Shown here: positions 8,138 to 40,577 of the stretch, piece by piece
Position numbering within the stretch: the stretch's first letter is position 1
Layout: every line of letters starts with the position of its first letter
NCBI GenBank assembly: GCA_017617445.1
Contig: JAFZWE010000007.1
Coordinates: forward strand, 1-48,151
DNA: 48,151 bases
DNA from: Bacteroidales bacterium
Lineage (GTDB): Bacteria > Bacteroidota > Bacteroidia > Bacteroidales > WCHB1-69
Direction: 5' to 3'
Notes under the pieces: generated by a model
The model's input: the letters and a program-made list of their open reading frames with translations, nothing else
Database searches by the model: none
Told to the model about the DNA's origin: nothing
Made by a program: the position numbers and the translations under genes

Positions 8138-9211
8138 CTATTTTTTCCTCCAAAAATAGATACCCACCTTGCACAGCAGCTCGTGAACGTTGAATTTTTG
8201 ACGTGAAATCATCGTGTCGGGCATCAACGAGGCCATAAACTGCATAAAAGGAACACAACTGATGTATAATGTTTTGCCATCACATTTACCCTTGGCTGGC
8301 AGCATATAGGGAATGGTTCCCACACTGCAACTCGGATCGTAAGACTTGATGGTCAGTTTCTGGTTCTGACGGTTGGTGAAACTGATGAGCAGCTTAGTGG
8401 TAGTGGTGCAATAACTGCGTGGTGGCGACATCACAATGGCCGTGAGCAAACTGTCGCTCACCTGAAGAATGGTGTCTGCCAACCATTGCAAATCAGTGCT
8501 ATCGGGTAGATGATATCTTCCATAGGAGGCTTCTCCTCCAAGATCCATACACATCGCATCCAAATCAGCAGCAGTGATGTTGAACATTTCCCACGAAACT
8601 CCAGCGTCATACTGTTCGTCCAAGTGGTGCAACAGTGAATCCAGCTCCGCCGCTGAAAAACTCTTCTTAAAAGACTTGAACACCCTGTCCGATTCGTTTT
8701 CTTCATGCTTCCAAAGACTCACGCATTCTCTCTCATTGTTCTGAGAAACAAACATATCACCGTTTCTTTTATACTCAATTTTATCCTTAACACTTCCAGA
8801 ACAACCTGTAACAGTGGCTGATATACGAATAAAATCTACGGGATATTGCAGAAAATCCTTCAAGGGATGGTCGTAACGGAAAGGGGTATAAGTCTGCTCA
8901 TTGATGGCAAACAGATAAAAATGGCAACCATCTGCCAACATCACAGTGTCGCGACTTTGTTGATAAGGCAGAATATCCGTGATTTTCTCAAAAGGTGTTT
9001 CAATGCAATACCATTTCTTTCGATCACGGTCAAAGTGATAAAGGAGATTCTCTTTTTTACCGAAAAGATTGCCGTTCACCCGCACCCTCTCATCTTCGGG
9101 AATACGAATGGGCACAGAGTCGTTCTCGCTTTGCTGGGCATGCAAGGAAAAGCCCGTCGACATCATCAGCGACAGGAGTAGAAGGCGAAGGGAGGCGACA
9201 GAACTTTTCAT
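8138..9211 (-). CDS. Secreted protein of unknown function, last gene of the giant-protein operon
   Basis: The 357-residue product has a signal peptide ending SLHAQ. The mature part shows no family that I recognise. It has several Cys residues (CSGSVK, SYCTTTTK, DPSCSVG, KGKCDGK, ISCVPF) that could form disulfides. Residues about 175-245 (FKKSFSAAELDSLLHHLDEQYDAG) look helical. It starts 18 bases after the stop of the fibronectin-repeat gene, so it is the fourth gene of the operon beginning at 22184. The tight linkage suggests an accessory role for the giant protein, which is inference only. Confidence 0.75.
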   Translation of the reverse strand: MKSSVASLRLLLLSLMMSTGFSLHAQQSENDSVPIRIPEDERVRVNGNLFGKKENLLYHFDRDRKKWYCIETPFEKITDILPYQQSRDTVMLADGCHFYLFAINEQTYTPFRYDHPLKDFLQYPVDFIRISATVTGCSGSVKDKIEYKRNGDMFVSQNNERECVSLWKHEENESDRVFKSFKKSFSAAELDSLLHHLDEQYDAGVSWEMFNITAADLDAMCMDLGGEASYGRYHLPDSTDLQWLADTILQVSDSLLTAIVMSPPRSYCTTTTKLLISFTNRQNQKLTIKSYDPSCSVGTIPYMLPAKGKCDGKTLYISCVPFMQFMASLMPDTMISRQKFNVHELLCKVGIYFWRKK

Positions 9212-9229
9212 GGCATTGACAAAGGAAAA

Positions 9230-11434
9230 TCACTTCACATTTACGGTTGCCTCTTTCGATTTCTGCGAACGTTTGCCGGTGCCGAGAAACATCTGGATGG
9301 AATAGGTCACCTTCTGTCCCTGCTGAACTTGGCAGTCGGTATAAGTGGTTTCGCCGCGCTGGAAGCTGGCCAGCGCGTAGGCCGGACCGTCGTCCACCGA
9401 TTTGTAGATTACACCGTAGTAGCTGTTCTTCGATTTGTATTCGTAGGAGAATTCGAGATTTACACAATTTTTGTTCTTATTCATTGAGGCTTTCAGCGTC
9501 AGTGGGATTTCAACAACAGAGGCCCCGCGGAAGCGAACTGTGGTCTGTCCGGTCTTTCCGGAGGAGAGCTTGCCGTCGTCAAGCACTTCAATACAGTAAT
9601 TGTAGTTCTTGGCGGAGGGTTCGGGGTAGTCGGTAAACACAATGGGTTCATCGGGTTTCAACTCATCGGGAGTGATCATGCGGATGCATTTCCATTGGGC
9701 TTCATTGTCGAACTTGCGATAGATGTAGTAGTAGGCCACATCTTCGGAGGTGCTTTGCAGCCATGTGAAGGTGACGGATTCTGAAGTCTGAGTGTAATCC
9801 TTCAGCACGGCGATGCCGGGCGGGATGATGTCAGGCACGGGTACGGCCAGCGTGTCGGAAGGTTTGGAGAAGTTGTGGCTGTTGTCTTCTGCCACCACGT
9901 AGAAGTAGATGTTCTTGGTCAATGTTTTACGGGTGATAGAATCCGTAAAGACGGTGTCTTCCACACGGCGGCCGGTCTTTTGGATGAAGTCATGGTCGAT
10001 CTGATTGGCAAAATAGACACGGTAACCCAAGATGTCCTTTTCGGGGTTGGGGTGCCACTGCATGTACACGGCACCGGCAGTGTCCACCACTGCCATCAGG
10101 CCGGTGGGCGGAGTGGGCGGCACATCATCTTCAATGTTGTTGAGCTGTGACAGTGAATAGGAGAAATTGTTGTTGTTATCGACGGCGAACACACGGTAGT
10201 AACCGCGGCCACGGTCGTGGGCTTTCTTATCTACCCACTGGCGTGTTTTGGGCGGCAGCAGGTCGGAAACCTTTTCCCAAGGTCCTTCCGGATCGTCGGC
10301 AAAGGCGATGACAAAGCCCTTGAGATCCTCATCCTGCTGGTCCATAAACCAGTCGAGGGTGCAGACGGAGTTGTTTTCCGGCACAATCACATCCAGCACG
10401 GGGATGGTGGGCGGGATGATGTCCTCCATTTCAAAGGTCTCTGACTTACGCTCGGGAGCGAAATCGCCGAAGGCGTCAAAAGCCTTCACCCGATAGATAT
10501 ACTTCACACCAAGTTTCAGTGAATCAATGTAGCCGACATTGTCTTCCAAAAGCGAGGCGATATCACGTCCCAATCCCTCGTAGGTCTCTTCATCGGGGGT
10601 ATAACCAAAGATGGGGGTGCTGTTGAGAGCTTCCCAGTGGCGTCCGTTGTCGGTGCTGCGTTCAAGATAGTAGCCGGAGAGGCGGTTTTTGTGCCAGTAG
10701 ATGAAGGCGGTAAACGGCCCGTTCTGGTAAATCTCAATGGGCGGGATTTGTTCATCGATGGAACGCACAAAGGGCACACAGAGCACATCCACGATGTTGA
10801 TGGGGGTCAGCGCCATCTCCTCCGGCACGAGGCATTCAACTCGGTAGGTGTAGGTCTCACCCTTCTTCACATCCTTGTCCACGTAGCGGAGGCCCAGGGC
10901 GTCGGCCGCATCCTTGCTTATTTCAGCGGCAAGATAGGCCATCGCCTGGCGCTGGGTCTGTTCCTGCTCGCGGCGGAACACGAAGTTCTCAAAACCTTCC
11001 GACTCCTTCGGATTGAAATAGGAAGGGCCATACAAGGCTTGGGCGGCGGCTCCCACATAGAGATTGGTGGAGTCGTAACGCTGCATCATCTGCTCCAAAG
11101 TCAAGGGCTTGATGGGCTGCGGATTCAGCACTTTCGTAAAAACAGTGTCACCCTCCTTAATCTCCGAATCCGACTTGTCGCGGATGATGTTCCAGCCATA
11201 GTAGTTGGCGGAGATCCACACACCGGCATTCTGGGGCGCCCAACGCAGCACCACGCTGTCGCCATAGCTTCGGGCAATCAAAGTGAAATCATACATCGGC
11301 TGTTCATAGTCGCCGACAGCAGTGGATAGCGTGTCCTCATCAACGGGCGTTTCCACCTGTGCCGACAGCCGGAGGCTCATCATCAGACAACCCAAAAACA
11401 TCGCTATAATAATAGAACTCTTTATCTTTTTCAT
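9230..11434 (-). CDS. Secreted fibronectin type III repeat protein
   Basis: The 734-residue protein has a signal peptide MKKIKSSIIIAMFLGC... ending RLSAQ. The ATG at 11434 is preferred to a TTG two codons upstream. The body is a chain of about five fibronectin III-like beta-sandwiches from roughly residue 215 on. They share patterns such as IPP(T/G)IPVL, GYYLERSTDNGRHWE, YIYRVKAFDAFGD, GYRVYFANQID and YYIYRKFDNEAQW. Residues 30-210 are a separate domain of unknown type. Such repeats usually act as rods or adhesive modules. It lies between the giant gene (28-base gap) and the 357-residue gene (18-base gap). No type IX C-terminal sorting domain is obvious; it ends KEATVNVK. Confidence 0.82.
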   Translation of the reverse strand: MKKIKSSIIIAMFLGCLMMSLRLSAQVETPVDEDTLSTAVGDYEQPMYDFTLIARSYGDSVVLRWAPQNAGVWISANYYGWNIIRDKSDSEIKEGDTVFTKVLNPQPIKPLTLEQMMQRYDSTNLYVGAAAQALYGPSYFNPKESEGFENFVFRREQEQTQRQAMAYLAAEISKDAADALGLRYVDKDVKKGETYTYRVECLVPEEMALTPINIVDVLCVPFVRSIDEQIPPIEIYQNGPFTAFIYWHKNRLSGYYLERSTDNGRHWEALNSTPIFGYTPDEETYEGLGRDIASLLEDNVGYIDSLKLGVKYIYRVKAFDAFGDFAPERKSETFEMEDIIPPTIPVLDVIVPENNSVCTLDWFMDQQDEDLKGFVIAFADDPEGPWEKVSDLLPPKTRQWVDKKAHDRGRGYYRVFAVDNNNNFSYSLSQLNNIEDDVPPTPPTGLMAVVDTAGAVYMQWHPNPEKDILGYRVYFANQIDHDFIQKTGRRVEDTVFTDSITRKTLTKNIYFYVVAEDNSHNFSKPSDTLAVPVPDIIPPGIAVLKDYTQTSESVTFTWLQSTSEDVAYYYIYRKFDNEAQWKCIRMITPDELKPDEPIVFTDYPEPSAKNYNYCIEVLDDGKLSSGKTGQTTVRFRGASVVEIPLTLKASMNKNKNCVNLEFSYEYKSKNSYYGVIYKSVDDGPAYALASFQRGETTYTDCQVQQGQKVTYSIQMFLGTGKRSQKSKEATVNVK

Positions 11435-11462
11435 TTTCAATGATTTTTAGCAAGATGAAACA

Positions 11463-14400
11463 TTAACGACCGAAATCCGCACTGCCCGAATCCTTGATTT
11501 CAAGAGCCGCACTGCGGAGCAAGTTGGTGTGCAAAGTAGAGGTATTGTTGATATCAACATTGTAGTAGCAATTGTTGGGGACGAGCTTCGCATTGGGGAA
11601 GAAGATTCGCGACTCCTGGTTCTCGCTCAATTTCACAGCTTGGGCAATTTTCATCAGCGTACTTTCAAAATTGGGGAATTCCGAGGAGATGTAATAGACG
11701 CATACGTTGTTTTTCAAGCTTTTGCCGATTCTATTGTACATATTTTTTTGATACCAGGAACCGAACACATCGGATTGTGAGGTATAGTAGTTGTGCTTTC
11801 CCTTGTCAGCTTGGTTGCTGCGGCAATTGTAATATTTGGTGGAAGACTTGTAGTAATAAAAATCCCGGTCGAAGCCGTGTCCACCACGGTCAAGGCACTG
11901 AGCCGCGGAGCTCCACCAGTATTTGGCCCAATAGATATCTTTCAACTGCAATTCGCTGGCATAGATAAAGTCTTCATTCTTATTGTAGAACTTGAGATAA
12001 TCCCCTCGCGTGGTGTAGTAGGAGTTTTGTTCGCCCAACCAGACATCATCCAATACGGTAAAATAATGGGTGACAATGTACAACTCCGGAATATCGAACG
12101 GGAAATTGGGGTGGGAGAACTTGGCGTTCTTGTACTTGGAGGAGTAATAGTCCTTGAAGTAGTCAACTTTATGGCTCCAGCCGCGCTGGTTGAGTCTCTG
12201 TGCGTGTTGCTGGTTAAGCTGCATGAAGTCATGGAACATCTTGATGTCATTCACGATGGCATAAGTCGCGTAGTCGGTGATGGTGATGCGGTAGGTTCCG
12301 TCACCCTGTCCGAGGGAGAGTCTGGAGGTGTATTGAGGCTCAAAGTACTTGTCGTCCATGGGCAGCAGCTCCTGAGTGCTGGAGAAGTCAAGGAGGCAGG
12401 GTACATCCACCGTGGTGGGATGATAACCATTGCCGGCGCACTGTGTGAAGTCGGTGCCTCCTTTGATACGCAAGTCAATATGGGAGAAGGAGGAACTGTA
12501 GTTGGCCACGAAGCCACGGGAGAGAATGTTTTTCAACTCTTTCTTCAATGTGTTATCGGTAACTGTGGCCTTTGCGGTCTTGCTAAAGTCCGTTTCACCC
12601 TTGTCGTCGGAGTGGCGGTACTCCAGCAGCGGAGTTTTCTTGAAATCGCGTTCCATGTCAAGGAATTGCTGGAAGTACTTGGTGTGCATGGCGTGCAGGT
12701 TGGGGTCGCCGCCGTTGTTCAAGGCGAGGAAGAAGCGTGGCGGCATCGTGCACTTGGTGTTGTAGCGTTTCGGATCCTGCGGGTCGTAGGGCAGGAACAT
12801 CCAGTAGCTCCGCCAGGAGCTGAATTTTATGGTGAGACAACTGCTTCCTATACTCATTTGCCCCTTGGCCAAATCATCAGCGAGAATGTCGTAATTGGCC
12901 GGGTCTTTTCCATAGGTGTAACATCCAGTTGAAAGGCGACGGGCGATGAGTTCGCTATAGGTTTTGTAGTTGAAATCGGCCCACCAGGTCCATTCATACA
13001 CACAGTCACCAATGGAGGAGGCCACCTTGTAGCCGTTCTTCATTTGGGTACGATAGTAAGTCATAGAGTCCTTTCCGTATTCCACCTTGTTTGAATAAAT
13101 CTCCTCCATTTGTTGGTTTTTGATGTTGATGTTTTTCTTTCCGCTGGAGGAATTGTTACTGCTGTGGGCGTTCTGTGCCTGTGTGTAGGTGGAATTGGAG
13201 ATGCGCTGACTGTACTCTTTTTTCTTTTCGGTAAGTGCGGCGTTGGCCGTGGCCATCGCGTTTTGGTAGGCGTTCTTTTCCACCACAAGGAATTTCAGCT
13301 TGTGTGGACCATAACCCCGGTCGCCATACTGTTTCTTCGGCAGCTGTACTTTCACGTAGGGAACGGTGGCATTGGGATAGTAGGTGTAAGAACACTCTTC
13401 TGGATCGCCCATTTCTCCGCTATAAGTCAGAAGGTAGATTTTGAGCATCTTGCCGTTGTTGCCCAAAATGGTTTTGTCGAAGAGGTCATCTTTGCGACGG
13501 TAGAGGTATAGCATGGCGTAGGGGGTAGCATTGCTGCCGGAACCTGTGTGTACGTACTCCTCTGTCGGGAACAGACGGTCGCCGTTGTATGGCCAAGAGT
13601 ACACCACCTGATCGTTCAAGCCATAGCCTAACGCCTTGGTCTTGAAGTAGAAGGTACTGTCACGCTTGTACTGTCTCACGATTTTTTTGCCGTTGTTATC
13701 ATCATAGAAGGTGGGGTCGAACCAGTCGTAGCCATTGTTGGTGGCTTTCATGGTTCCCTTGTTCGGGCCGGATACGTAGTAGGGGTAATCTTTGCCTGCC
13801 CCATTGTCAATCTTTGACAATTCTTTGCTGGCCACTTTCGTTCTCCATTCAAACCCGCGGGCATACAGGTACAGCTTGTTGTAACAGTCCTCCACAAGAC
13901 CGCCCTCATTGGTTTCAAAGAACAGAGCGTTGGCATCGTCGCGACTGGGGGTGAATTTCATGTTTTGCAAGGTACTGGGGTTGGCATAACTCCCGTTCTC
14001 TGTTTTCTTGAGTTGGTATTTCACTTTGCTTTCCACCAGTGTGAAATAGAACTTGCGGGCATTTTTACCATCGTTATCGGCGAGATAGACTTCTTTGTCC
14101 CACGGCATATTGGAAATAATCTTGCCCACTTGCAGCGGTGACTGGAGATTGCTCTTGGTCTTGGCTGCTGCCTCTGTTTCAAAGCCCGGGGTCACATTCT
14201 GGAACAGTTTCACGTTGGCCAACGGGTCGCCAGCGCCCGGCACACAAACATCGCCCACCTTGAAGTCCACGCTGGTGCTGAATTTGAGCAGACCGCCCAA
14301 CAGGTTGATCTTGAAGCGTAACATACCGTAGGCATACGACGGATTCGGGCCACCACCTTGCAACAGAGCACCAATACCTGCGCTGAAGAGGGAGAATTCG

Positions 14401-17400
14401 CCCTTCCAGAATCCGAGGTTGATTTTCAAACCCACATCGCCCTGCAATGCGGCATACACACGACCCAACGCATAGAAATTGTTCTTTCCTATCTGAGAGT
14501 GTCCAGGACAGCCTGTGCCGCTCACATCCAGCAGGGCCACGTCGAAACCGAGGTCGGCCGTTACATGTACGTAAAGGAAGAAGTCAAGCTTGAGCGCGGC
14601 GTGGAAGGTGGAACCCATGCAGAAACCGCCGCCCTTGTCGATGGCGAGCCAGTCGGTGCTTTTCAGCTTACGGGCATTCTTCACCCCTTCATCATTGGTA
14701 TCCATTTTCTTGTCATCATTCTCCATGCCGAAGAATTTCTTCAGGTCGTTGCTGAGGGGGGGCATCTGGTAGGCAAAAGCGTTACCTGTCTGCATATAGA
14801 AGGTAAATTCGGCTTCGGCGGTGCAGACTACCATATTGAGTTGGCTCTTCAACTGCACACGTTCTTCGTATTTGGGTTTGCCGATGGCAAAGTACCAATC
14901 CGTGCTTCCTGCTTTGTGATTGCCATCTTTCTTTCTGTAATGTTTGAGCTCAAAGTCAATTGGAATGCTGGCGGTAAGGCTGAAGGAGGGCTTGCCGCTG
15001 TTGCCACTGGTGGAGGCTTCTGCGGCGTTCTCGCGGTCGCTGGCACTGTGCGAACCGAGACCCGATTTGCCGGTCAGCGCGTTCAGGGCTTTGGTCACGT
15101 TGGAGCTGGTCAACAAAGAACTACCACCATGAACGCCACCCAAGGCAGATCCCAATACTGTAGAGCTTACGCCGTCCAGAAGTTCGGAGAGGTTGATGTC
15201 GGCTTTCACTGCGATGGAGAGACGGAAGTAGTCGTAAACATCGGTTCTCTCATAGCCCATGATGGCTTTGGCCTTGACCAATGGAGAGTTGTTGTTGCTG
15301 CCGTCGCCAGGTGTTTTGGTCTTGTCCATCTTGCTCATCACGTAGGCGTTGGCATCGATGAACACGCCGGAGAAGTGCTTGTTGGAGATACGCAACGAAA
15401 CCAGACCGTCGGCGTTCATGGTGTTCTCGGCACCGGTCAGCACGAGGCTGATACCGGCGTTGGCCACCCAGCTTCCACGGTCTGGAGTGAATTCCATGCC
15501 GGAGGCGGCCATCGCATTTTCGTTGGTGTTCTTTTCAGCCTTCTTCAGCAGGTTGACCGCACTGTAACTCGGGTCTGTCAAGTCCTTCGAGGCCTTCATG
15601 TTGTAGGCAAAGCCTCCGGAGAAACCGTTGATGCTGACCGCACCGAGAGCGATGCCGCCGGGGAACTTGCAGGAACCGTCGAAGAACCACCAGGTGAATT
15701 TTCCCTTGCTGTCGCTCTTCGTACCGAAGCCCACACTCATGGTCAAAGTCACCTTGCTCATGATGGTGACGGACAGGTTGCCGCCAAAGCCATCGCCCAT
15801 GGCACCGCCGGAAATGGCGAGACCGCTGAGGGAGTTGACCTTTCCACCACTGCCAGATCCCGAACCAGAGCCGGAATTACCTCCGCCGCCGCCAGAGCCG
15901 GAACTTCCCTTGCCCGTGCTGCTGAAGAAATCAAGAACTCCATCCAGGGTAAATACCTCGAAATCAATTTTGTCCAAAGAGATGGATTCAAGTTTGGCGT
16001 CCACCTTCTTCACATGGAAATGGTTGGTAGGTTCCACGATACCCCATACGGAGAAACCGCAGCGCGCGCCGAGGTCGGTTCCTTCGGTGGCGAACTTAAT
16101 CTGGCCACCCACTTTGAAACCGAGTTTCAGGTCATTCTTTTCAAAGGTGACAATGGGGTCAAATTTGGTGAGGCTGAAAGTAAAGCCGGCGAAGGAGACC
16201 GAGCCGATAGGCTCCCCATTCTCATCCACCTGGTCACCAGCACCATTGGAGGGTGCACCGCCAAGGGTCTTCTGCGGTGAGGCAAACGACCAGTCGCCGA
16301 TGTCAAATTCAAACTTGTCAATGGAGGCATCGGCCTTGCCGCTCTGCCAGTTGCGCATGCCCATGTGCTCAAATTTCGCCAAAGCACAGTTGACAGGAAT
16401 GCCGATTTTGTCGAACGCCACATTGATCTTGCCGTTCATCGTCAGGTCAATGCGGGTACCGTTCTCTTTGTATATCTTTTTGATTCTGAAATAGGAGGAC
16501 TTGGGATCAAAGTCAACCGTGGCGAGCCACATGTCAAGTTTGAGAGTGTCCTCCACCGCCTTGATGCTGAATTCAAGGCTATCGGACCCGATGGAGCAGT
16601 CGTAGGCGAAGCCGCCGCTGAACAGCGGTACGCCGAAACCGCCCTTGATGACACCGGCCTTGTACTGATTCTTCAGGAACTTCACACTGATGGTATCAAG
16701 GGAGAAGGCCCAGCCGCCGCCCGACTTCGTGTCAGCACGGAAAATGTCGCGGGCGAAAAGTTCGGCGGTAAAGCCGTTTTTATCGATAATCAACCCCTTG
16801 GCACCGAAGTTGATACGGCTGCCTGGATAGCAATAGTGTACGGAGTCCTTAATGGTTCCGTTAATGCCGTAAGTGTAAGAAACCACCGAGTCTTTCGGTT
16901 GCTCCTGGTCGGTGAAGGTGTTGCTGATTTCATCAGAAAGGAATACCTGCAACTCATCCCAATAGAAGCCCTGCCACTCTTTGGTGGCCTTAGCGATTTT
17001 TTTCTCACGCTCTTTCTTTTGTTCCTCTTTTTCATCCTTTGGGGGTTTGGCTTCGGCACCGAGGAGATACTCCCCGTCGATGGCTACCTCCTTCGGACTC
17101 TCCGTGGAGGAGTGGTCATAGAAGATGCCCTTGCCCGTCGGCACGAAGGTGAAGCGGTCGCATCCGGCGATGGCAAACGGATCCATGGTGATCTTGGCTA
17201 CCCAGTCATCCCAATCCTTGATTTTTGCCAACAAGCTGGCTTGCACCACTTTGCCCTTGCGCGGCGTACCGTCCTTCTCAATACCCATCACATCGTTGCT
17301 GTTCATGTCAAACTGGATTTCCGCCATCATGAATTTCAGCTTACCCGTGTCAATCACAATCACTGTGCCGTCCTTCGGATCGGCGAAGTTGGACGATTTC

Positions 17401-20258
17401 TTGAAGCGCATCTTGTAGCCATCATTCAGCTCAATTTCATAGTCGCGACCCATGAAGAGCTCAATGTGCTGGCTGGAGTTGCCCAAGAAGCCCTGCTGGT
17501 CCATACAGATGTTGTTGGCCAGGAAAGGCACATAGGCGTTGTCGCTTTGTGCAGCGAAGATGGCCCAGATGTTCATCAACGCCGTCACGGGCGAGAAGTA
17601 CATGTTATTGATGGCAAAAATCACGTTTTTAGAACCGGTAATCTCCTCGTCGGTGATACTCAGCGGGAAGGTCATCACCTGTGTGGCGACATTTTCACCC
17701 ACGAGGGGTCCGAGCAGGCCGCCATACTTCTTGGCGTACTTCTCTCCATACTCCTTGAATTTGTCGTAATATCCTTTAATTTGCTCATTCTCACCTAATT
17801 TTGAAACCACTGCATTGATATCGTCATTACTCCATTCGTCCAAATCCAAGTCGTTGGTCAATGCATCCAGGTAGGTGGAAGAGTCCGTGGCTGTACTGAC
17901 AGCTGTTCCCTTGATGACCTGGTAGTCCTTGTTGATCTGCACGGAGTCGAACTTGACCTTCAAGCGTACATCCACGCCCAGCGGATGCCATACCACATAA
18001 CCGTCACCGTTATACACTTTCTTGGTGGTATCGTATTTTGCGGTTTGCATCACGAATGGGAAGTCACCGATTTTCAGCTCTACTTTATTTTGTATCAAGC
18101 TGTCTGCCTTGGGAGTGATAATATCCTTGCTCAATTTGTCCAAGGCTTTCGGGAAGCACTTCACCTTGTCGTTCAGGTCGGCGACAAATTCCGGCGGGTC
18201 TTTCAGTTTGAAAGCCGCATAATGGGATTTTCCATTATTTAACAGATTGTAATGACGAGAGGTATCCCCTATCTGTTTGATGCGCATCTCCAGGACAGCG
18301 ACATACTGATCTTTGGTCTTCAGCGTGTCAAACAGGAGGCTGTCGATGTATTCGGTGTCCGAGATGCTGTCTTTCACAAAGAAGAAGGAGGTAACCTGGT
18401 GCGGTTTCTTTCCTTTGGGCAGTTTACCCACGCTGAGTTTGTAATAGACAGAGTCGCCATAATCCACACCGGTGGCTTTTTTCCAGCGGAACGAGAAGTC
18501 GTCTCGCTTCGTCACCTCCGGAAATTCCGACTCCACCCATGTGGAGTCGTCAAGTGCCTTGTGGGAAAGATCCACGGGATAGGTGAACTGCGGCGGATAC
18601 ACTTTGTCGAGGGCGCCGCTGTCGATGCCCCACGCAAAGACAACATTGGAGGTGTATTCATCCGTACCGAACATCACCTGGTCCACAATGCTGTCATGAC
18701 TGGAGGGCATGTTATGAATGTACTCCGTGATGGTGTAGGTGGTGCGCTGGTTATAAGAGAAGAAGGTTTCCGCATGAAGGTGGAGCACATACTTGTAGCC
18801 TTTCTGCAGCGTATCGCTCCAATGCTGGGGAAGGGACATCAGCTGCACAGGATCAACGGTAAGGCTCGGATCGGGGCGGTTGCACTCAATTTCATGCTTG
18901 CAGATCGGCTGAACATTCAGAGAGTTGGATACTTCACCGCCTACATACTCATAGAGGGATGCTGTATATTTCACCCGGAAAATGGAATCCCCGCGGACAG
19001 GCATCCACCGGATCTGCAATGAATCGGACGGAGTGACCTGATAATACGGCTCGCTGCCGCCGACATAGGTGCTGTAGTGGTCGTCGGCAGGCACCAGGAC
19101 AGATTCTCCCGGCAACCTGTTGATGAGCGCGTTGACAATGGCATTGTCCTTTCCCGGCGTGAGGAAGTACGGGTCACGAATCTCCTTTATCACCTTGTCG
19201 CGGTTGTCGGATGTGGAGAAGGTAGTGCTTCCCTGGAGATCCTGAATAACCTCACCCTGCCCCCATACAAAAGCAATTACCTGGCTCTTTCCTTCATTGC
19301 CCAAAGAGACCTCGGTCAACATGCTGTTTCTCAAAGTTGCCAGCACTTGCGCTGCATACACATGACCTCGTTGCAAACGGAAATGACGGTTGGCTAACGT
19401 GTCATGGATGTAGGAGGTACGGTTCCTGTTTTCAATGGTGGCGATGGTAGCATTGTTGTTGATGGCCTCCTGAATGTTCTGGTTTTTATACACTTCAACA
19501 ATTTTCAATGTATAATTGAAATCACTGGCAGACAAACAGTTGGAAATCACTCCCGTCCATGTGAAATTCACCGAGCGCTGCAAAGGCAGTACCACGTACT
19601 GGTCGCTGCTGCGGTTGTCAGAGGATACGCTGCCACCGCCCAACAGGTTGTTGGCGGGGTTGCTGTTGTTGAGGTTGCCCGCGCTGTAGCCATTGATCGG
19701 CGAGGTGAACTCAGGAGCGGAACCGGAATAGCAAATGGTGAAAGTATAGCACACCTCCTCCCCTGCCGAAGTGGGATTGGGGTTGTTACGCCCCTCCCAT
19801 ATATAGGGTTTGATGCAGAAACGATACTGCCCTTCAGGAAGCGTTAACACATTACTGGTCAACTTACTGCGATCCACATTGGTTTCATACGCGTTGGAGT
19901 TCAAATTCCCGATAATCTGGTCAAAGTGGTTTCGATGCAACAACAGCGGCGTATTGCCGATGGTCAGCGGCGTGTTCGGCTGATACTCCTTATTGGTGTA
20001 AACGAAAAAATTCTCGTTGGTGGCTGAAAAATCACACGACAGGGAAATGGTAAAGTAGATCTGTTTCTCCTGCCCCGTGGTATTGACCATCTGAATGTTG
20101 AAATACCGCCCAGGGTCATCCAAATAACTGAATCCCGTGGGTGGGAACATTCTCACTTTGGGTGTGATGGTAGTCACGATATCGGTCTGGGCAGACACGC
20201 TGAACATCTGCAGCAGCGCGGCCATGAATACAACGACAAGGATATGTGCTCTTTTCAT
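11463..20258 (-). CDS. Giant secreted protein, TANFOR-like, 2,931 residues
   Basis: A signal peptide (cleavage near VSAQ) precedes an N-terminal domain with MFPPTGFSYLDDPGRYFNIQ, which resembles the TANFOR domain of giant Bacteroidales proteins. Residues about 200-700 hold Ig/fibronectin-like segments (SLQIRWMPVRGDSIF, FSFRWKKATG). A charged helical stretch rich in Lys and Glu lies near 1067-1095. A Gly/Ser-only linker lies near 1443-1474. Between about 720 and 2050 the sequence is beta-rich with alternating short strands, like a long solenoid or barrel-like sheet. The C-terminal third is rich in Tyr, Asn and Lys and contains YYT/YYK clusters, ending SGSADFGR. No lipobox or known sorting domain is visible. 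It sits 12 bases after the barrel gene. A surface or secreted structural role is inferred. Confidence 0.85.
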   Translation of the reverse strand: MKRAHILVVVFMAALLQMFSVSAQTDIVTTITPKVRMFPPTGFSYLDDPGRYFNIQMVNTTGQEKQIYFTISLSCDFSATNENFFVYTNKEYQPNTPLTIGNTPLLLHRNHFDQIIGNLNSNAYETNVDRSKLTSNVLTLPEGQYRFCIKPYIWEGRNNPNPTSAGEEVCYTFTICYSGSAPEFTSPINGYSAGNLNNSNPANNLLGGGSVSSDNRSSDQYVVLPLQRSVNFTWTGVISNCLSASDFNYTLKIVEVYKNQNIQEAINNNATIATIENRNRTSYIHDTLANRHFRLQRGHVYAAQVLATLRNSMLTEVSLGNEGKSQVIAFVWGQGEVIQDLQGSTTFSTSDNRDKVIKEIRDPYFLTPGKDNAIVNALINRLPGESVLVPADDHYSTYVGGSEPYYQVTPSDSLQIRWMPVRGDSIFRVKYTASLYEYVGGEVSNSLNVQPICKHEIECNRPDPSLTVDPVQLMSLPQHWSDTLQKGYKYVLHLHAETFFSYNQRTTYTITEYIHNMPSSHDSIVDQVMFGTDEYTSNVVFAWGIDSGALDKVYPPQFTYPVDLSHKALDDSTWVESEFPEVTKRDDFSFRWKKATGVDYGDSVYYKLSVGKLPKGKKPHQVTSFFFVKDSISDTEYIDSLLFDTLKTKDQYVAVLEMRIKQIGDTSRHYNLLNNGKSHYAAFKLKDPPEFVADLNDKVKCFPKALDKLSKDIITPKADSLIQNKVELKIGDFPFVMQTAKYDTTKKVYNGDGYVVWHPLGVDVRLKVKFDSVQINKDYQVIKGTAVSTATDSSTYLDALTNDLDLDEWSNDDINAVVSKLGENEQIKGYYDKFKEYGEKYAKKYGGLLGPLVGENVATQVMTFPLSITDEEITGSKNVIFAINNMYFSPVTALMNIWAIFAAQSDNAYVPFLANNICMDQQGFLGNSSQHIELFMGRDYEIELNDGYKMRFKKSSNFADPKDGTVIVIDTGKLKFMMAEIQFDMNSNDVMGIEKDGTPRKGKVVQASLLAKIKDWDDWVAKITMDPFAIAGCDRFTFVPTGKGIFYDHSSTESPKEVAIDGEYLLGAEAKPPKDEKEEQKKEREKKIAKATKEWQGFYWDELQVFLSDEISNTFTDQEQPKDSVVSYTYGINGTIKDSVHYCYPGSRINFGAKGLIIDKNGFTAELFARDIFRADTKSGGGWAFSLDTISVKFLKNQYKAGVIKGGFGVPLFSGGFAYDCSIGSDSLEFSIKAVEDTLKLDMWLATVDFDPKSSYFRIKKIYKENGTRIDLTMNGKINVAFDKIGIPVNCALAKFEHMGMRNWQSGKADASIDKFEFDIGDWSFASPQKTLGGAPSNGAGDQVDENGEPIGSVSFAGFTFSLTKFDPIVTFEKNDLKLGFKVGGQIKFATEGTDLGARCGFSVWGIVEPTNHFHVKKVDAKLESISLDKIDFEVFTLDGVLDFFSSTGKGSSGSGGGGGNSGSGSGSGSGGKVNSLSGLAISGGAMGDGFGGNLSVTIMSKVTLTMSVGFGTKSDSKGKFTWWFFDGSCKFPGGIALGAVSINGFSGGFAYNMKASKDLTDPSYSAVNLLKKAEKNTNENAMAASGMEFTPDRGSWVANAGISLVLTGAENTMNADGLVSLRISNKHFSGVFIDANAYVMSKMDKTKTPGDGSNNNSPLVKAKAIMGYERTDVYDYFRLSIAVKADINLSELLDGVSSTVLGSALGGVHGGSSLLTSSNVTKALNALTGKSGLGSHSASDRENAAEASTSGNSGKPSFSLTASIPIDFELKHYRKKDGNHKAGSTDWYFAIGKPKYEERVQLKSQLNMVVCTAEAEFTFYMQTGNAFAYQMPPLSNDLKKFFGMENDDKKMDTNDEGVKNARKLKSTDWLAIDKGGGFCMGSTFHAALKLDFFLYVHVTADLGFDVALLDVSGTGCPGHSQIGKNNFYALGRVYAALQGDVGLKINLGFWKGEFSLFSAGIGALLQGGGPNPSYAYGMLRFKINLLGGLLKFSTSVDFKVGDVCVPGAGDPLANVKLFQNVTPGFETEAAAKTKSNLQSPLQVGKIISNMPWDKEVYLADNDGKNARKFYFTLVESKVKYQLKKTENGSYANPSTLQNMKFTPSRDDANALFFETNEGGLVEDCYNKLYLYARGFEWRTKVASKELSKIDNGAGKDYPYYVSGPNKGTMKATNNGYDWFDPTFYDDNNGKKIVRQYKRDSTFYFKTKALGYGLNDQVVYSWPYNGDRLFPTEEYVHTGSGSNATPYAMLYLYRRKDDLFDKTILGNNGKMLKIYLLTYSGEMGDPEECSYTYYPNATVPYVKVQLPKKQYGDRGYGPHKLKFLVVEKNAYQNAMATANAALTEKKKEYSQRISNSTYTQAQNAHSSNNSSSGKKNINIKNQQMEEIYSNKVEYGKDSMTYYRTQMKNGYKVASSIGDCVYEWTWWADFNYKTYSELIARRLSTGCYTYGKDPANYDILADDLAKGQMSIGSSCLTIKFSSWRSYWMFLPYDPQDPKRYNTKCTMPPRFFLALNNGGDPNLHAMHTKYFQQFLDMERDFKKTPLLEYRHSDDKGETDFSKTAKATVTDNTLKKELKNILSRGFVANYSSSFSHIDLRIKGGTDFTQCAGNGYHPTTVDVPCLLDFSSTQELLPMDDKYFEPQYTSRLSLGQGDGTYRITITDYATYAIVNDIKMFHDFMQLNQQHAQRLNQRGWSHKVDYFKDYYSSKYKNAKFSHPNFPFDIPELYIVTHYFTVLDDVWLGEQNSYYTTRGDYLKFYNKNEDFIYASELQLKDIYWAKYWWSSAAQCLDRGGHGFDRDFYYYKSSTKYYNCRSNQADKGKHNYYTSQSDVFGSWYQKNMYNRIGKSLKNNVCVYYISSEFPNFESTLMKIAQAVKLSENQESRIFFPNAKLVPNNCYYNVDINNTSTLHTNLLRSAALEIKDSGSADFGR

Positions 20259-20270
20259 AGTATGTGTGTT

Positions 20271-22184
20271 TTATTTTGTTGACATCTGTTGTTTCTGAAG
20301 TTTTTGCGCCTGACGGGCGAGTTTGTGTTCTGCGCGTTCCTCTTTGGTCATCTTCTTGATGATCCTTGCAGCAAAAGCGTACGAGTAAGCCAGGGTGAAG
20401 CGGCAGTCAAGTGTGGACTGCACGCGCTGTCCAATGATCTCACGGTCGTTGAAGTTGCTGAGCGACAAGTAAAGAGAAGCAGTGTGGGCATTCTTGTAGC
20501 TAAAGTTGCTACCAATGCTGTTGCTGACGGAGAAGTTATTGGAAGCCCCTTCCAACTTCTGGACATTATAGCCGAAAGAACCGTTATAGGAGAGTGTCCA
20601 GTTGGTCTTCTCCTTTTTCAAAATCTTGTAGCGAAGCCCGAGGTTCAAGGTATGGGCATCATACTTGGCATATTGGGAAGTGGACATGGAGAAATCGTAG
20701 CCGCAGTCAAATCCGAGACGGATGGCATCAAAGTCTATCCCATAACCGATACCGAATGTCATGGTCATCACATTGGCCCCGCCGACATAGAGTTTATTGA
20801 GGTTTTGATTTTGAATGAAATTGAAGTTCAAATTAATGGAGTGGGCGTAGGTTCTTTCAAAATTAACACAGGGAGAAACCGCCAATGTATGCACTATTTG
20901 ATTGATTCTCAAACTATCAACAACTTTATAAGTTCCATCATACTGATCCTGCTTGATTCCGTTGTAATTGATTCCCAAGTTGAAATTGTTGCCGATGTTA
21001 TTGTTCCAGTTGATGGAGTAGGTGGCCACCTGGTTGGTGTACATCTGTTTTCTGTTGAGGTTGTCGCGCTGGAAATAGCCCACCGCACTGATATTGGAGT
21101 GTCCTTTGAAAAGGGAGGTGTTGATCACCGCGCCGATGCTGTGGGAGTTCTGGTTGAAGTTGGCCGCACCCAACGACACATAGTCAGGCTGGATGAAGCG
21201 GTATGTAAGGCTGGCGGAGAAATTCCTGGCCATAAAATTCATCGCAGCGTCACCGGCAAAACGGAGAATGGTGTTGTTGCGGCAAGCCAGCAGCCACTCG
21301 GTGTTATGGAGCAGTTTGTCCACCTTTTCGTCCTGTCGGACAAGTTGCGAAAATGAGTCCCTGAGGTCCTGGGTGTAGAGGCTGGCGCCAACATTGGCAG
21401 TGAAGGAGAACCACTTTTTGATGGCGAAGCGGCCCGAAAGTCCAAGCGTGATGTTGTCGTGCGGGGCGATGGAATCCTGCCACACCTGCGGCAGTGACTT
21501 GATGGCATCTTTGGCTTTCAAAAAACTGAAATCAATGAAGTTACGTTCGTTACCACCGCCTATTCTGAATCCGACGGCATCACGGCGGTACTGTGGCAGG
21601 TCAGCCTCCGGCACGTTCAACCCCAGCAGGGAGTCGGCCAGCTGCTGGAATGCCGTACGGTCGTCATAGCCCTTGATGCGGGTCGCCTGCTGGAGATGGC
21701 CACCGAACACGCCCATACGGAACTTCTTTCCCTGATATTCAGCCCCCACTCCAAGGAACGTGAGCCCCGAATAGGTGTAGTTGGAAAAGTGCATGCTGCT
21801 GTGACCGATGTGGAACTTCCAGTTGCGCCACGTGGGCATGAAACCCAGGTGGAACGTCGGCAGTTGCGGATACGAAAAGGAGGTGGTGTTATTGGCAAAA
21901 TAGAAAGAGAAAGGCAGTTGGAAACTGTAGAACGAAAGGTTGATACTCGCGTAGATATTAGCGGAAAAGGGGGTACTGCCGGGGTGGTTGGAATTGTAGG
22001 AGATGCCTGCCCCCGCGCCCACTGTCCCGCTGATCGCAAACGGATCAGAGTTCTTGATTTCATTGATGCGATCCATGATCTGGGCATGGGCAGAAAACGA
22101 ACCCGAGACAAGCAGCACCGCCGCTAAAACGACAGCCTTCCATGGGAAAAAAATATGACGATTATGGTGTAAAGTATGTTTCAT
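20271..22184 (-). CDS. Outer-membrane beta-barrel protein, first gene of the giant-protein operon
   Basis: The 637-residue product has a signal peptide (cut near SAHAQ) and then a long run of amphipathic strands with aromatic girdles: SFQLPFSFYFANN, TFHLGFMPTWRNWKFHIG, FSASLTYRFIQPDYVS, SINLNFNFIQNQN, LNLGLRYKILKK, FTLAYSYAFAAR. This fits an integral outer-membrane barrel. The C-terminus carries a highly charged tail (KKMTKEERAEHKLARQAQKL) that would point to the periplasm, which is unusual after a final strand. The ATG at 22184 is used; an in-frame GTG lies two codons earlier. Being first in the operon with the giant protein, it is a candidate exporter or anchor for it. The specific family is not recognised. 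Confidence 0.82.
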   Translation of the reverse strand: MKHTLHHNRHIFFPWKAVVLAAVLLVSGSFSAHAQIMDRINEIKNSDPFAISGTVGAGAGISYNSNHPGSTPFSANIYASINLSFYSFQLPFSFYFANNTTSFSYPQLPTFHLGFMPTWRNWKFHIGHSSMHFSNYTYSGLTFLGVGAEYQGKKFRMGVFGGHLQQATRIKGYDDRTAFQQLADSLLGLNVPEADLPQYRRDAVGFRIGGGNERNFIDFSFLKAKDAIKSLPQVWQDSIAPHDNITLGLSGRFAIKKWFSFTANVGASLYTQDLRDSFSQLVRQDEKVDKLLHNTEWLLACRNNTILRFAGDAAMNFMARNFSASLTYRFIQPDYVSLGAANFNQNSHSIGAVINTSLFKGHSNISAVGYFQRDNLNRKQMYTNQVATYSINWNNNIGNNFNLGINYNGIKQDQYDGTYKVVDSLRINQIVHTLAVSPCVNFERTYAHSINLNFNFIQNQNLNKLYVGGANVMTMTFGIGYGIDFDAIRLGFDCGYDFSMSTSQYAKYDAHTLNLGLRYKILKKEKTNWTLSYNGSFGYNVQKLEGASNNFSVSNSIGSNFSYKNAHTASLYLSLSNFNDREIIGQRVQSTLDCRFTLAYSYAFAARIIKKMTKEERAEHKLARQAQKLQKQQMSTK

Positions 22185-22267: not shown

Positions 22268-22275
22268 CAAAATTA
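22268..22275 (-). promoter_or_regulatory. Possible -7 promoter element of the giant-protein operon
   Basis: On the minus strand TAATTTTG (22275-22268) matches TAnnTTTG, 83 bases before the ATG at 22184. No clear -33 TTTG is found at the expected spacing. The 22191-22409 gap otherwise holds only AT-rich sequence and an imperfect palindrome at about 22320-22338; no xseB gene is seen there. Confidence 0.45.
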
Positions 22276-32242: not shown

Positions 32243-35200
32243 TTACTCCACTTTCACACAACGGAGGCTGCAGCCGTCCTTTTTGCTCTGGGTGAGGAGT
32301 TCATCCTCACAAACCGCGCATTGCACAGATGAACCCATGACAGGATTGGCCGCCGGCGTGCAAGTCCAGAAACGAGCCATGGTCATCAGACTCTCGTAGG
32401 TGTCTGTAGCATTGACATACATACCGCCGCCACGCGCATCAAATCCCCTGGACGGCTCTGCGCCCACCAGACTGCTCACCCAATGGTCGGCATTAGTGGA
32501 CTTGATGTACGGCATACCGCCGGCACCCTCTACGAGCTGGAGGAAGTCTGTGTTCGTGGGAATTGCCCATCCGTCCGGGCAGACTCCCTGAACGTGTCCG
32601 AGAACCACTGCCGGTTCTGCGGCATCGTCATCCTCCGTCACTCCCATGGCGGTGTACCAAGTGTAAAGATTGCCATAGATGGCCTGCAAGGAGTCGCTGT
32701 TGTCGTATTTGCGGATACCTGAAACTGCGCGGGTGCTGCGGCTTTGGGCCACACGCACATTCTCGCGTATCCAGCAGTTGCCGCCGATACGGGTAACTGG
32801 GTAAGAAATGCCGTTGATGATGACCTCACTGCACTCCGGATAGCTGAGCATGATACGCTGTATGCAGATGAGACTGTCACCGCCGCAAGTATCCTTCACA
32901 TGCCATTCCACCACATAAGTAGTGTCCTCAAGACCTTCCGGAATGGCATAGCGGTTGTTGTCCGTCAATCCTTCGCCCTTCAAAAACAGCGGCATGGCCG
33001 GGATATTGTTAGTCCAAATGGGCTGGTGAAGGATGACCAACGTGTCGATGGCACCATATCTCAAAGTGATGGATGTGTCATTGGGGCAAGTATAGGTCAC
33101 GCTGCCCGGCTTTTTCACAGAGGGTTTCACCGTGAAAATAACATTATCGCTGGCCGGACAGTCGTGAGCGTCCAAGATGGAAACTGACACAGTATATTCC
33201 TGATCGCCATCATTGACACCTGTCTGTGCCACCGTGGTAGAAGCATCTTGCATATCCGTGGCATCACCGCTCCACATATAGCGATAGGGACTGGTGCCAC
33301 CGTTCACGGTAACGCTCACCGGGTAGCTACCCTGATTCGGACAGAGATTAGACGGGGTGACGATTTCGGCAGTCAGCTCAGCGATTTCAGTAATCTCAAA
33401 AGGAACTTCCACACTATAGTGGAGTGAGTCGGTAACCACCACAGTATAGTTGCCGGCTTCAATCCCCTCAAAAGTATATGGGCTGCTATGTTCAACAGCA
33501 ACACCATCCATAGCGAAGGTGTACTTGCCATTGTTGGCCTTGCCACCCGTCACAGTAATTTCAGCAGTACCATTGTTCCCATTGCGGCAGAACACCTGTG
33601 TGGTAGCGGCTTCCGCCTGCAACTTCGGATAGATGTACAATAAACTATCCAGAACTCTAAAACTGACATCCACATAGTTATTGTTGTTATTTTGGAAGTA
33701 TGACGGACGTAAATACATATTGAAAATATGGAGTGCATCGGCCGACCCTGTACCATGTGCAACCGTGTCATCGGGCATGCCAGTGAAACTGAAATCGTCA
33801 GTGCTGTATAAATTAACCGGATCAGTAATTGACACACCATACCCTGTCACTCTCTGGTCGGTGCCATTGTATTCCACCTCCTTGCCATGCTCCTGGATCA
33901 TCACGACAACACCGGGACGCGGGGTAATTTCCTGCTTAAAGTCATAGATTACATTGTAATTGGTGATGTCATCACTTGTAGCGAAGTCTGTGGTTATTGT
34001 GGTATAGTTTGTCAATACTGAATCAAGGTAAATGGCTACATCTCCACGCTGGCTCGTCACCACACCGGCGGTGATGGTCGCACCGTTCTGCAGACCGCCG
34101 ATCACCCAGCCCGTACCGGTGGTAGGCTCTCCGCCAGGGGTGTCACCAGCCGCTGTCGTGCCATTGTCAAGCCCGTCAGTTGGCACCGTATTCACGAAAT
34201 TATATCCGTCATACACCTTGGTATTGTCAAGGGAGATTGCCAGATCGTGTTTGGTGATCTCGAGCGTTCCATAGTTTGTAGTGAATGTACCGCCATAGTT
34301 GTTTTCCATGTCTGGCAAGTTGAAGGTGTACACATTGTTGTTAGCTGCATTGTCTCTATAGTTCTTGATTCCAGCAAACGTCGGCACAATGGTAACAATG
34401 TCATTGGTGGGCAAACGGAACTGGAGTCCATCAGTGCCCTCTATGGCAGGGATATTCGTGCTGCCATAGGTCACTGTGTACTCCTGTTTCGTGTGCGTTT
34501 CGCCGTCATACACCCAACTGCCGCTGGCAGAGGCAATGGTGACATTCGTCATATCCTTTGTCACCGTCAGGGTGCCATTCTGGTAGGTAATGTCATAGTT
34601 GGCCGTCACTTCCTCATCGGAGGCATTGTAGATAACACAGCCGCTCGGCACATTGTCGCTGCTTCCAGCAGCAGTCTGACTGCCCGTCACGGTAACCGCA
34701 TGAATATGATCGGTGGAGACTAAGGAAGTTCCATCAGCGATGGAGTAACCGTTGTCGGTCAGTGCTGTGCCGTCATACACTTTTTCATTGCTGTTGGCTT
34801 TGATGGTCAAAGGTTTCTGGGTCACCACCACACTAAGTTCAGCGCTTTCTGTTCCGCAGTTGGGAGTCTGATTGCTTTCGGCGACCACAGTGATGGTATA
34901 GTTGTGCACAACAGGCTGCACTGCCGTGATTTTTTGAGTCATGGCATCATACGCGAAACCTGCCGGCAGTGTCGGGGCAATCACGTTGGAATGAGTGTTG
35001 GTGATTTCTACCGGAGTGATAGAGTTTCCGTACACGATTGACTGTTCATCCAGAGAGACCGAAATGGTGGGGAGCGGGTTGATGTGGATATTGGCGATGT
35101 GAATGCTGTCGCTGCCGCAGTCGTTGCCCACCTTCACACTGTAATCAAAATCACCGCTGGCATCGGTGAATGGGGTGAAGCTCGCACCGTTCGCGTCACT

Positions 35201-38200: not shown

Positions 38201-38809
38201 ATAAACTCTTCCAGCTATACCAGCATTCAGGAAATTATTACTGGAGATGGTGCCACTGGTATGCAGATTGCGAATAGTGGCTCCGTTAAGACAAGGGAAA
38301 GGAGCGTCATAAGCTCCGGCTGTCAGGTTTACGGTCAGCTCATGTCCGCAACCATCGAAAGTACCGCAGAATGGATGTCCTTCGTTACCCACCATCGTAG
38401 TGACACTGATATCGGCGACCAGCATCACGGTCTTGCCTTGGTAGGTATTGGTGCCATTGTTCACCTCTGCAGCAAAAGCATCCCAATCCTCTGCCGAATT
38501 AATGATAAGGTCCGCATTAGTAGATTTGAAAATATAAGGTTTCCCTGCCTCAATTGCAGTGGCATCTTCGAAAGACATGGTCAAAACACCATCATTGAAA
38601 GACGAGCTTTCAAGGCTCTTCACCGTGGAATTCTCAAGTGAGGTGCCTGTGAAATCATTCAGGTCAAATGGCAGGCAGATGGTGTTCCAGCTATAGTCGC
38701 GATAGATTGTGCGGTTGGCAAGGGACACAGCATACGGCTCCGAAGTTGCGGCAGCAGTGGCGATGGCACCATTGTTGTCTGTGTTGTTGTATAACGTCAA
38801 CGAGTTCAC
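32243..38809 (-). pseudogene. Mosaic surface protein, C-terminal 2,188 codons after an in-frame TAG
   Basis: This frame directly continues the 38810-40282 gene. Its first codon is GTG next to the TAG, with no signal peptide or promoter, so it is probably not translated alone. Modules in order (residues counted from 38809): 1-100 a WNTICLPFDLNDFTGT module; 100-330 GLUG-like beta-helix; 360-490 InlB/Listeria-Bacteroides repeats (GYVFAGWSTTPDGDVEY, YAKW); 500-1060 a second copy of all three; 1070-1260 two Ig-like domains (CKDETMVSDLSVSITGG, FQWYRNGTPISG); 1280-1670 MBG/YDG-type repeats (KVYDG); 1730-1900 SprB/PKD-like domains; about 1996-2188 a FISUMP domain (RIGGNCWIRENVR, GVCPDGWAIPTNTDFLQL). 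Together with the upstream part it would be a surface protein of about 2,679 residues. Confidence 0.8.
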
Positions 38810-40282: not shown

Positions 40283-40423
40283 ATTGTCAAATTTTTACAC
40301 TCTGATTCAAATTAATTCAAATTGGCAAAATTACAATTTTTCACTGTTACATTTTTTTACTTTTGTAATTTTTTTTTTACACTAAAATGTTAATTATACG
40401 ATATTAGCATTCAATATGTTACA
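40282..40423 (-). repeat. Duplicated leader, copy 1
   Basis: The leader and promoter region is nearly identical to 44843-44983 and runs into about 90 further identical bases coding for the signal peptide. Shared landmarks include ATATTGTCAAATTTTTACAC and TTAATTATACGATATTAGCA. Differences are clustered around the -7 element. Confidence 0.85.
40326..40333 (-). promoter_or_regulatory. -7 promoter element of the split surface gene
   Basis: On the minus strand TAATTTTG (40333-40326) matches TAnnTTTG, 44 bases before the ATG at 40282. The gap 40283-40577 (295 bases) holds this promoter, an AT-rich leader almost identical to that of the next gene, and the terminator at 40521-40558. No gene is seen in it. 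Confidence 0.6.
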
Positions 40424-40558: not shown

Positions 40559-40577
40559 ATTGCAAAAATTTCAGATT

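What the first reader, a model, noticed from the sequence alone, without database searches (positions are those of the whole stretch)
8138..22184. Four-gene operon for a giant secreted protein with its own outer-membrane barrel
Seen: a 637-residue beta-barrel, a 2,931-residue secreted protein, a 734-residue FnIII-repeat protein and a 357-residue secreted protein lie on one strand with gaps of 12 to 28 bases, behind a single possible promoter. All four have signal peptides; none has a lipobox or obvious type IX sorting domain. Known: TANFOR-type giant proteins exist in Bacteroidales but have no established function. Inference: the barrel could export or anchor the giant protein, with the FnIII protein as a rod or linker. 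It may be an undescribed surface assembly.
Basis: partly seen in the sequence, partly recalled or inferred. Interest (0 to 1): 0.75.

Follow-up and report, generated by a model that had tools for sequence, protein, structure and literature searches.

The report
Barrel partner for TANFOR giant proteins
A gut-type bacterium carries a gene set, also found in distant relatives, that pairs a giant exported protein with its own outer-membrane barrel and a helper protein, which gives a testable idea of how such giants are held or moved at the cell surface.

Summary
The four same-strand genes are real, with the stated places and gaps. Three of them, barrel (B), 2,931-aa giant and FnIII protein (F), are a conserved cassette; the 357-aa gene is not (found in 1 of 49 sources, the window itself). 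The giant has a divergent TANFOR domain (T) fused to a ~1,340-aa core that other genomes encode fused or as a separate gene. Of 15 TANFOR places found in 198 genomes of the order, 14 have B on the same strand within 100 bp; one has none on its contig. T and B distances correlate (r 0.80, 15 loci), far above T-F (0.30) or either with SprA (0.20, 0.08), so B looks like T's cognate partner. B matches no Pfam, NCBIfam or PorP/SprF family. All 128 B-bearing genomes of 296 have the T9SS translocon SprA; none of the 68 SprA-less genomes has B (kinship inflates this). Most likely the giant leaves by T9SS and B holds it, as SprF holds SprB.

The parts
20271..22184 (-). Outer-membrane barrel B, 637 aa, cognate partner of the TANFOR domain (inferred)
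   Evidence: Open frame; 28 amphipathic beta segments against 16.0 +- 2.9, beta-signal in 18 of 40 family members; directly upstream of the giant in 9 of 9 close loci; no Pfam/NCBIfam match
11463..20258 (-). Giant secreted protein, 2,931 aa, divergent TANFOR domain + core + tail
   Evidence: Open frame; relatives
19689..20207 (-). Divergent TANFOR domain, giant residues 18-190
   Evidence: hhalign probability 96, E 1.9e-9 against distant TANFOR-like N-termini; iterated profile; TIGR02542 itself does not hit
14019..18035 (-). Conserved core C, giant residues 742-2080
   Evidence: Matches whole 1,394-1,524-aa proteins of other genomes and the middle of other TANFOR proteins
11466..14006 (-). Fast-evolving tail, giant residues 2085-2931; no toxin domain found
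   Evidence: Identity profile; tails homologous among nine relatives
9230..11434 (-). FnIII-type secreted protein F, 734 aa, third member of the cassette
   Evidence: Open frame; fn3 E 0.0011; directly downstream of the giant in 8 of 9 close loci, the ninth ending inside the giant
8138..9211 (-). 357-aa secreted protein in the same run of genes; not part of the conserved cassette
   Evidence: Open frame; found in 1 of 49 sources and in 2 of 198 genomes, the other copy on a contig without the cassette
22268..22275 (-). Possible Bacteroidetes -7 promoter element of the run
   Evidence: Pattern TANNTTTG, only slightly enriched over shuffles

Best explanation
Barrel, giant and FnIII protein are one functional cassette. 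The barrel is the cognate outer-membrane partner of the giant's TANFOR domain. The giant enters the periplasm by Sec, crosses the outer membrane with the type IX machinery (SprA), and is held at the outer membrane by the barrel through its N-terminal TANFOR domain; the FnIII protein joins the assembly. It would work like SprF with SprB or PorP with PG1035, but with a barrel of another family and an N-terminal instead of a C-terminal docking domain. Shown here by sequence: the conserved cassette, remote TANFOR membership, specific co-evolution of TANFOR with the barrel, co-occurrence with SprA. Inferred: contact, export by T9SS, surface location, role of F.
For: B within 100 bp on the same strand at 14 of 15 TANFOR places of the order and upstream of the giant in 9 of 9 close loci. 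B in 28 of 31 genomes with TANFOR or core (p 2e-27). T-B distance correlation 0.80 against T-F 0.30, B-F 0.31, SprA-T 0.20, SprA-B 0.08 (n 15), robust to leaving out loci; partial correlation given SprA 0.73 (n 18, 0 of 5,000 permutations). A relative of B sits beside a TANFOR-like protein in a second operon. T9SS: 128 of 128 B genomes have SprA, 0 of 68 SprA-less genomes have B; SprB-repeat giants, most with a T9SS sorting domain, in the same distant loci; sorting-domain proteins after F in 3 of 3 close loci scanned. Precedent: PorP/SprF barrels hold type B cargo (PMC9143113 abstract).
Against: No T9SS sorting domain on giant or F. One TANFOR gene has no barrel on its 12.2-kb contig. SprA is so common (187 of 198 in the order) that co-occurrence says little there, and in the phylum sample 16 of the 20 SprA-less genomes listed are one family. 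Ten of 36 order-level barrel hits have no giant or TANFOR hit within 20 kb (several are contig ends). T and B are neighbours, so linked inheritance alone raises T-B, though F of the same loci does not follow. The CHASE2 operon suggests that a TANFOR-like domain may dock from the periplasm. No structural or experimental evidence.
Confidence: 0.5

Rival explanations
1. The barrel itself is the export channel: a two-partner-like system in which B recognises the TANFOR domain and passes the giant through the outer membrane, independent of T9SS.
For: Dedicated, co-evolving barrel beside the giant; no sorting domain on the giant; no PorP/SprF gene near the cassette (0 of 34 hits in 7 genomes).
Against: B was never found without SprA (0 of 68 SprA-less genomes). 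No Pfam match, so no POTRA or Omp85 domain detected. T9SS cargo proteins lie beside many cassettes.
Confidence: 0.22
2. A periplasm-spanning assembly: the TANFOR domain docks to the periplasmic face of the barrel and the giant stays mainly in the periplasm, for example as a scaffold, transport or signalling structure.
For: In the second operon a TANFOR-like protein stands with a FecR-domain protein, a B relative and an inner-membrane CHASE2 cyclase, which suggests docking between the membranes. No export signal beyond a signal peptide is seen.
Against: Co-occurrence with SprA and with T9SS cargo genes. Published TANFOR proteins carry toxin domains that make sense outside the cell (PMC7073777).
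Confidence: 0.18
3. The giant is a polymorphic toxin of the published TANFOR class, and the 357-aa protein is its immunity protein.
For: TANFOR proteins are described as polymorphic toxins with C-terminal toxin domains and adjacent immunity genes (PMC7073777). The tail evolves fastest. The 357-aa gene is peculiar to this genome's cassette.
Against: No toxin domain by Pfam or NCBIfam. The tail is homologous in all nine giants compared, no swap. Close relatives keep the giant without the 357-aa gene; its only relative in 198 genomes is unlinked. Four other TANFOR proteins scanned with Pfam gave no toxin domain (4 of the 15 TANFOR places).
Confidence: 0.07

Closest known systems
TANFOR-domain proteins, proposed polymorphic toxins (TIGR02542; Jana, Salomon and Bosis 2020, PMC7073777)
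   Same: Large secreted protein with an N-terminal TANFOR-like domain; FnIII, SprB and T9SS-sorting-domain genes near such genes; T9SS in the genome.
   Different: Domain too divergent for TIGR02542; no toxin domain and a conserved tail. The paper's text does not contain the word barrel, and the barrel partner is what is added here.
PorP/SprF barrels with type B T9SS cargo (SprF-SprB, PorP-PG1035; PMC9143113 abstract, PMC10202324 passages)
   Same: A dedicated barrel encoded beside a large exported protein in T9SS-bearing Bacteroidota.
   Different: B is about 550-640 aa, not about 300-350; no profile similarity to 12 PorP/SprF sequences (hhalign probability 1.2-2.7); the giant has no type A or B sorting domain, and the co-evolving domain is N-terminal.
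Two-partner secretion (TpsB/TpsA; recalled)
   Same: Barrel plus giant exported protein in one run of genes.
   Different: No POTRA/Omp85 domain in B by Pfam; a third gene (F); only in genomes with SprA in the sample.
800-930-aa barrel of the CHASE2-cyclase operon (no name found)
   Same: Homologous barrel (hhalign probability 99.9) beside a TANFOR-like secreted protein.
   Different: Extra N-terminal part, FecR and CHASE2-cyclase partners, no giant and no F seen in the four loci examined.

Membership tests
TANFOR domain family (TIGR02542) | Match to model TIGR02542 | tested here: not met
   No match at E <= 1 nor in the own genome at E <= 0.001
TANFOR domain family (TIGR02542) | Homology of the N-terminal domain to TANFOR domains | tested here: met
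   hhalign probability 96, E 1.9e-9 over 119 columns against five distant N-termini, two of them TIGR02542-positive below cut-off
TANFOR polymorphic toxins | C-terminal toxin domain | tested here: not met
   No Pfam or NCBIfam toxin domain; tail conserved among nine relatives. A toxin fold unknown to these libraries is not excluded
TANFOR polymorphic toxins | Adjacent immunity gene | tested here: inconclusive
   The 357-aa gene is not conserved with the cassette; function unknown
T9SS cargo | C-terminal sorting domain type A or B | tested here: not met
   No PF18962, PF13585, TIGR04183 or TIGR04131 match at E <= 1 in any of the four proteins
T9SS cargo | Type C sorting domain | not tested
   No model of it was searched by name
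T9SS cargo | T9SS present in the genome | tested here: met
   SprA 2,541 bits and two PorP-family genes in the own genome
PorP/SprF barrels | Match to TIGR03519 or similarity to the family | tested here: not met
   No NCBIfam or Pfam match; hhalign probability 1.2-2.7
Two-partner secretion (TpsB) | POTRA and Omp85-type barrel domain | tested here: not met
   No Pfam match for the barrel at E <= 1
Outer-membrane beta-barrel (fold class) | Signal peptide, many amphipathic strands, C-terminal beta-signal | tested here: met
   28 segments against 16.0 +- 2.9; beta-signal in 18 of 40 family members, not at the very end of the window protein. No structure model was possible

The most novel reading that the evidence does not exclude
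B-family barrels and TANFOR(-like) domains are a general receptor-ligand pair of the Bacteroidota outer membrane, an undescribed export or anchoring route. One branch handles giants with FnIII proteins in T9SS-bearing cells; another feeds a FecR/CHASE2-cyclase signalling unit. If so, the TANFOR domain is the targeting signal of that protein class, and its receptor is now named.
Probability: 0.4. Interest if true: 0.85.

Novelty: new variant of a known kind. Interest (0 to 1): 0.68.

Why it matters
How TANFOR proteins reach the outside is open: the 2020 paper could only point to T9SS from SprB and sorting-domain neighbours. Here a barrel gene stands directly beside 14 of 15 TANFOR genes of the order sample and evolves in step with the TANFOR domain, much more than the FnIII gene of the same loci does. 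That names a specific partner and makes the question testable by one deletion or one complex structure. It also points to sorting-domain-free giants with a dedicated barrel in rumen and gut Bacteroidales.

Tried and rejected
Sequence searches against solved structures gave nothing usable: giant and barrel by phmmer (the giant's best, E 0.0074, covers its Gly/Ser-rich stretch), B, T and C by profile (0 hits each). The barrel as a PorP/SprF relative was rejected. Genomes with the cassette but without SprA were sought and not found. A toxin tail was looked for and not found. Homology of core and barrel was tested and rejected (hhalign probability 0.5). Pfam DUF6603 on the core is weak (E 0.01, 14.9 bits, cut-off 27) and no paper in the library names it. 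Promoter and terminator scans gave no more than shuffles. Limits of method: ORFs in fetched loci are longest open frames from the first start codon, filtered for overlap by length (in L096 this hid the barrel behind an opposite-strand ORF); signal peptides were judged by a crude script; Fisher tests treat genomes as independent; the 18 and 15 loci of the co-evolution test are the order-level loci with T and B (and F), without the window clade, L071 (barrel cut by a contig end) and L072 (weak internal T match).
Full report
WHAT IS THERE. On the minus strand lie a 637-aa barrel (B, 20271-22184), a 2,931-aa giant (11463-20258), a 734-aa FnIII-type protein (F, 9230-11434) and a 357-aa protein (8138-9211), 12, 28 and 18 bp apart. 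None has a Pfam or NCBIfam match above a curated cut-off. B has the sequence pattern of an outer-membrane barrel: 28 amphipathic beta segments against 16.0 +- 2.9 in 500 shuffles (largest 25), and 18 of 40 family members end in an aromatic beta-signal by a strict pattern.

THREE GENES, NOT FOUR. A search of genome contigs with the giant gave 8 loci, all titled Bacteroidales or Bacteroidetes MAGs or uncultured isolates, 4 of 8 naming rumen, cecum or faeces. A whole-genome search of the order added G120 of the same family. In these 9 loci B is directly upstream of the giant on the same strand in 9, and F directly downstream in 8; the ninth, L039, ends inside the giant. The 357-aa gene was found in 1 of 49 sources scanned with an iterated profile, the window itself, and in 2 of 198 genomes of the order, the second copy on another contig than the cassette.

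THE GIANT IS A DIVERGENT TANFOR PROTEIN WITH A CORE. TIGR02542 does not find it, but aligned N-termini of the window clade match five distant TANFOR-like N-termini with probability 96 and E 1.9e-9 over 119 columns; of these five proteins L049 is TIGR02542-positive at E 2.7e-15 and L047 at E 0.0008, both below the curated cut-off. Residues 742-2080 form a core (C). In 16 of the 32 ORFs that match it C stands without TANFOR, in proteins of 1,394-1,524 aa; in others it is fused to TANFOR. Fused versions (L043, L049, L050, L087, L093, L095, L100) and split versions in one locus (L044, L047, L056, L059) both occur, a usual sign that two parts work together. Not every TANFOR protein has C: 15 T-matching ORFs do not, some of them fragments. 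The tail (2085-2931) is homologous in all nine giants compared but evolves fastest; no toxin swap was seen.

THE CASSETTE IS WIDESPREAD. In 198 genomes of the order the counts are: core-bearing giant 22, TIGR02542 13, F 29, B 31 genomes. B is in 13 of 13 TANFOR genomes (p 2.7e-12) and 19 of 22 core genomes (p 1e-15); F is in 21 of 22 core genomes (p 8e-21) and 8 of 13 TANFOR genomes (p 6e-5); of 31 genomes with TANFOR or core, 28 have B (p 2e-27). The 16 TANFOR hits are 15 places. All 15 were read: 12 as L060-L071, two as L049 and L059, one as L136. In 14 of 15 B stands on the same strand within 100 bp of the gene; L136, a 12.2-kb contig of G184, has none. F is in 9 of the 12 loci L060-L071. 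In the 19 loci seeded on the core (L041-L059), B is in 10, F in 14, both in 9; several are contig ends. Ten of 36 barrel hits in the order have no giant or TANFOR hit within 20 kb. A barrel profile found B or relatives, long barrels included, in 128 of 296 genomes of the phylum. Of 16 stretches that I fetched around strong barrels (L086-L101), 13 hold a TANFOR-like gene (E <= 1e-3) and 8 a clear F; L088, L090 and L097 have no TANFOR-like gene.

CO-EVOLUTION SINGLES OUT B AND T. For 18 loci with T and B, distances correlate at 0.73, and still at 0.73 after removing SprA distances of the same genomes (T-SprA 0.17, B-SprA 0.18; 0 of 5,000 permutations). Linkage alone does not explain it: in the 15 loci that also have F, T-B is 0.80 but T-F 0.30 and B-F 0.31. 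Leaving out sets of 2 to 4 loci keeps T-B at 0.63-0.77 (rank correlation 0.53-0.68; at most 1 of 2,000 permutations). In the trees the two cassettes of G184 fall in different parts of both B and F trees; L049 has a barrel among T-type loci but an F among fused-type loci, so parts can be reshuffled. The test does not model a tree explicitly, and F may align less well.

A SECOND OPERON WITH A RELATED PAIR. B is homologous (probability 99.9) to 800-930-aa proteins. In the four loci examined (L114-L117) the order is: 366-399-aa secreted protein, about 240-255-aa protein (FecR domain in 2 of 2 scanned), long barrel, 719-754-aa protein (CHASE2 + cyclase in 3 of 3 scanned). My TANFOR profiles flag the first protein in 2 of 4 loci; the four aligned match the TANFOR profile at probability 79, E 1.6e-5, over 131 columns, against controls of 0.1 (FecR protein), 0.1 (PorP), 0.1 (B) and 22 (F, 36 columns). 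So a TANFOR-like domain beside a B-family barrel seems to recur in another setting. In my reading this supports T as the docking domain for B, and hints that docking could be on the periplasmic side.

LINK TO T9SS. The own genome has SprA. Of 296 genomes of the phylum 228 have SprA; B is in 128 of these and in none of the 68 others (p 1e-20; for the 57 strong barrels p 5e-8). Kinship inflates this: 16 of the 20 SprA-less genomes listed belong to one family. In the order none of 11 SprA-less genomes has a cassette gene, which says little when 187 of 198 have SprA. In distant loci I scanned 6 neighbouring large proteins (others were left unscanned): SprB repeats in 6 of 6; a T9SS sorting domain above cut-off in 4, just below in 1, and one is cut by the locus end. 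In close relatives, sorting-domain proteins follow F in the three loci scanned (L032, L033, L034); L037 has a similar ORF by eye, and L035, L036, L038 and L040 have other ORFs there. Giant, B, F and the 357-aa protein have no sorting domain. B is not detectably PorP/SprF, and none of 34 PorP-family hits in 7 genomes lies within 300 kb of a cassette.

INTERPRETATION. Shown: a conserved B-T(C)-F cassette, remote TANFOR membership, specific co-evolution of B with T, co-occurrence with SprA. Inferred: B binds T; the giant is exported by T9SS and retained by B, as type B cargo is by PorP/SprF (PMC9143113, abstract; PMC10202324, passages); F is a further member. Export by B itself and a periplasmic assembly remain open.

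LITERATURE. PMC7073777 was seen as outline, parts 1 and 2 of 6, one results section and passages. It proposes TANFOR proteins as polymorphic toxins and T9SS substrates; 'barrel' and 'SprF' occur 0 times in its text, and its neighbourhood analysis used conserved-domain models. Searches for TANFOR (3 papers), its model names (1 paper), TANFOR with related terms, T9SS with PorP/SprF and toxin terms and a combined search (0 papers) showed no description of the barrel partner; only open-licence PMC papers were searched, and supplements were not. PMC11796102 (one passage) lists TANFOR as a trafficking domain.

Noticed in passing
L114:6244-13186, L115:5411-12062, L116:4975-11668, L117:7313-14226: Conserved operon of a TANFOR-like secreted protein, a FecR-domain protein, an 800-930-aa B-family barrel and a CHASE2-cyclase; a search for papers with CHASE2, FecR and adenylate cyclase listed 2, neither about this by title or abstract start.
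   Followed up: partly
L041:13761-14705 and 10 further loci: A family of about 300-324-aa secreted proteins (H) in 11 cassette loci, next to the barrel or the core in many; the one scanned (L041) has no significant Pfam or NCBIfam match.
   Followed up: partly
window 32243-48070: Run of very large repeat proteins; the one scanned (32246-38809) has a Fib_succ_major domain, Listeria-Bacteroides repeats and an SprB repeat. ORFs 38810-40282 and 40578-44843 begin with the same 31 residues.
   Followed up: no
window around 38810: ORF 38810-40282 ends where ORF 32243-38809 begins, and the neighbour paralogue 40578-44843 carries both parts in one frame: it looks like one gene that is broken, or an assembly error.
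   Followed up: no
L033:19915-20397, L034:21105-21605, L037:21197-21679: Small (160-166 aa) proteins 41-105 bp behind F in close relatives; T9SS sorting domain in the two scanned. The window has the 357-aa gene there instead.
   Followed up: partly
window 15840-15923 (giant residues 1446-1473): Gly/Ser-rich linker inside the core, absent in L036 and L040, perhaps a boundary between two halves of the core.
   Followed up: no
L136:5981-10909: The one TANFOR gene of the sample without a barrel on its contig; a 1,978-aa open frame precedes it on the same strand.
   Followed up: partly
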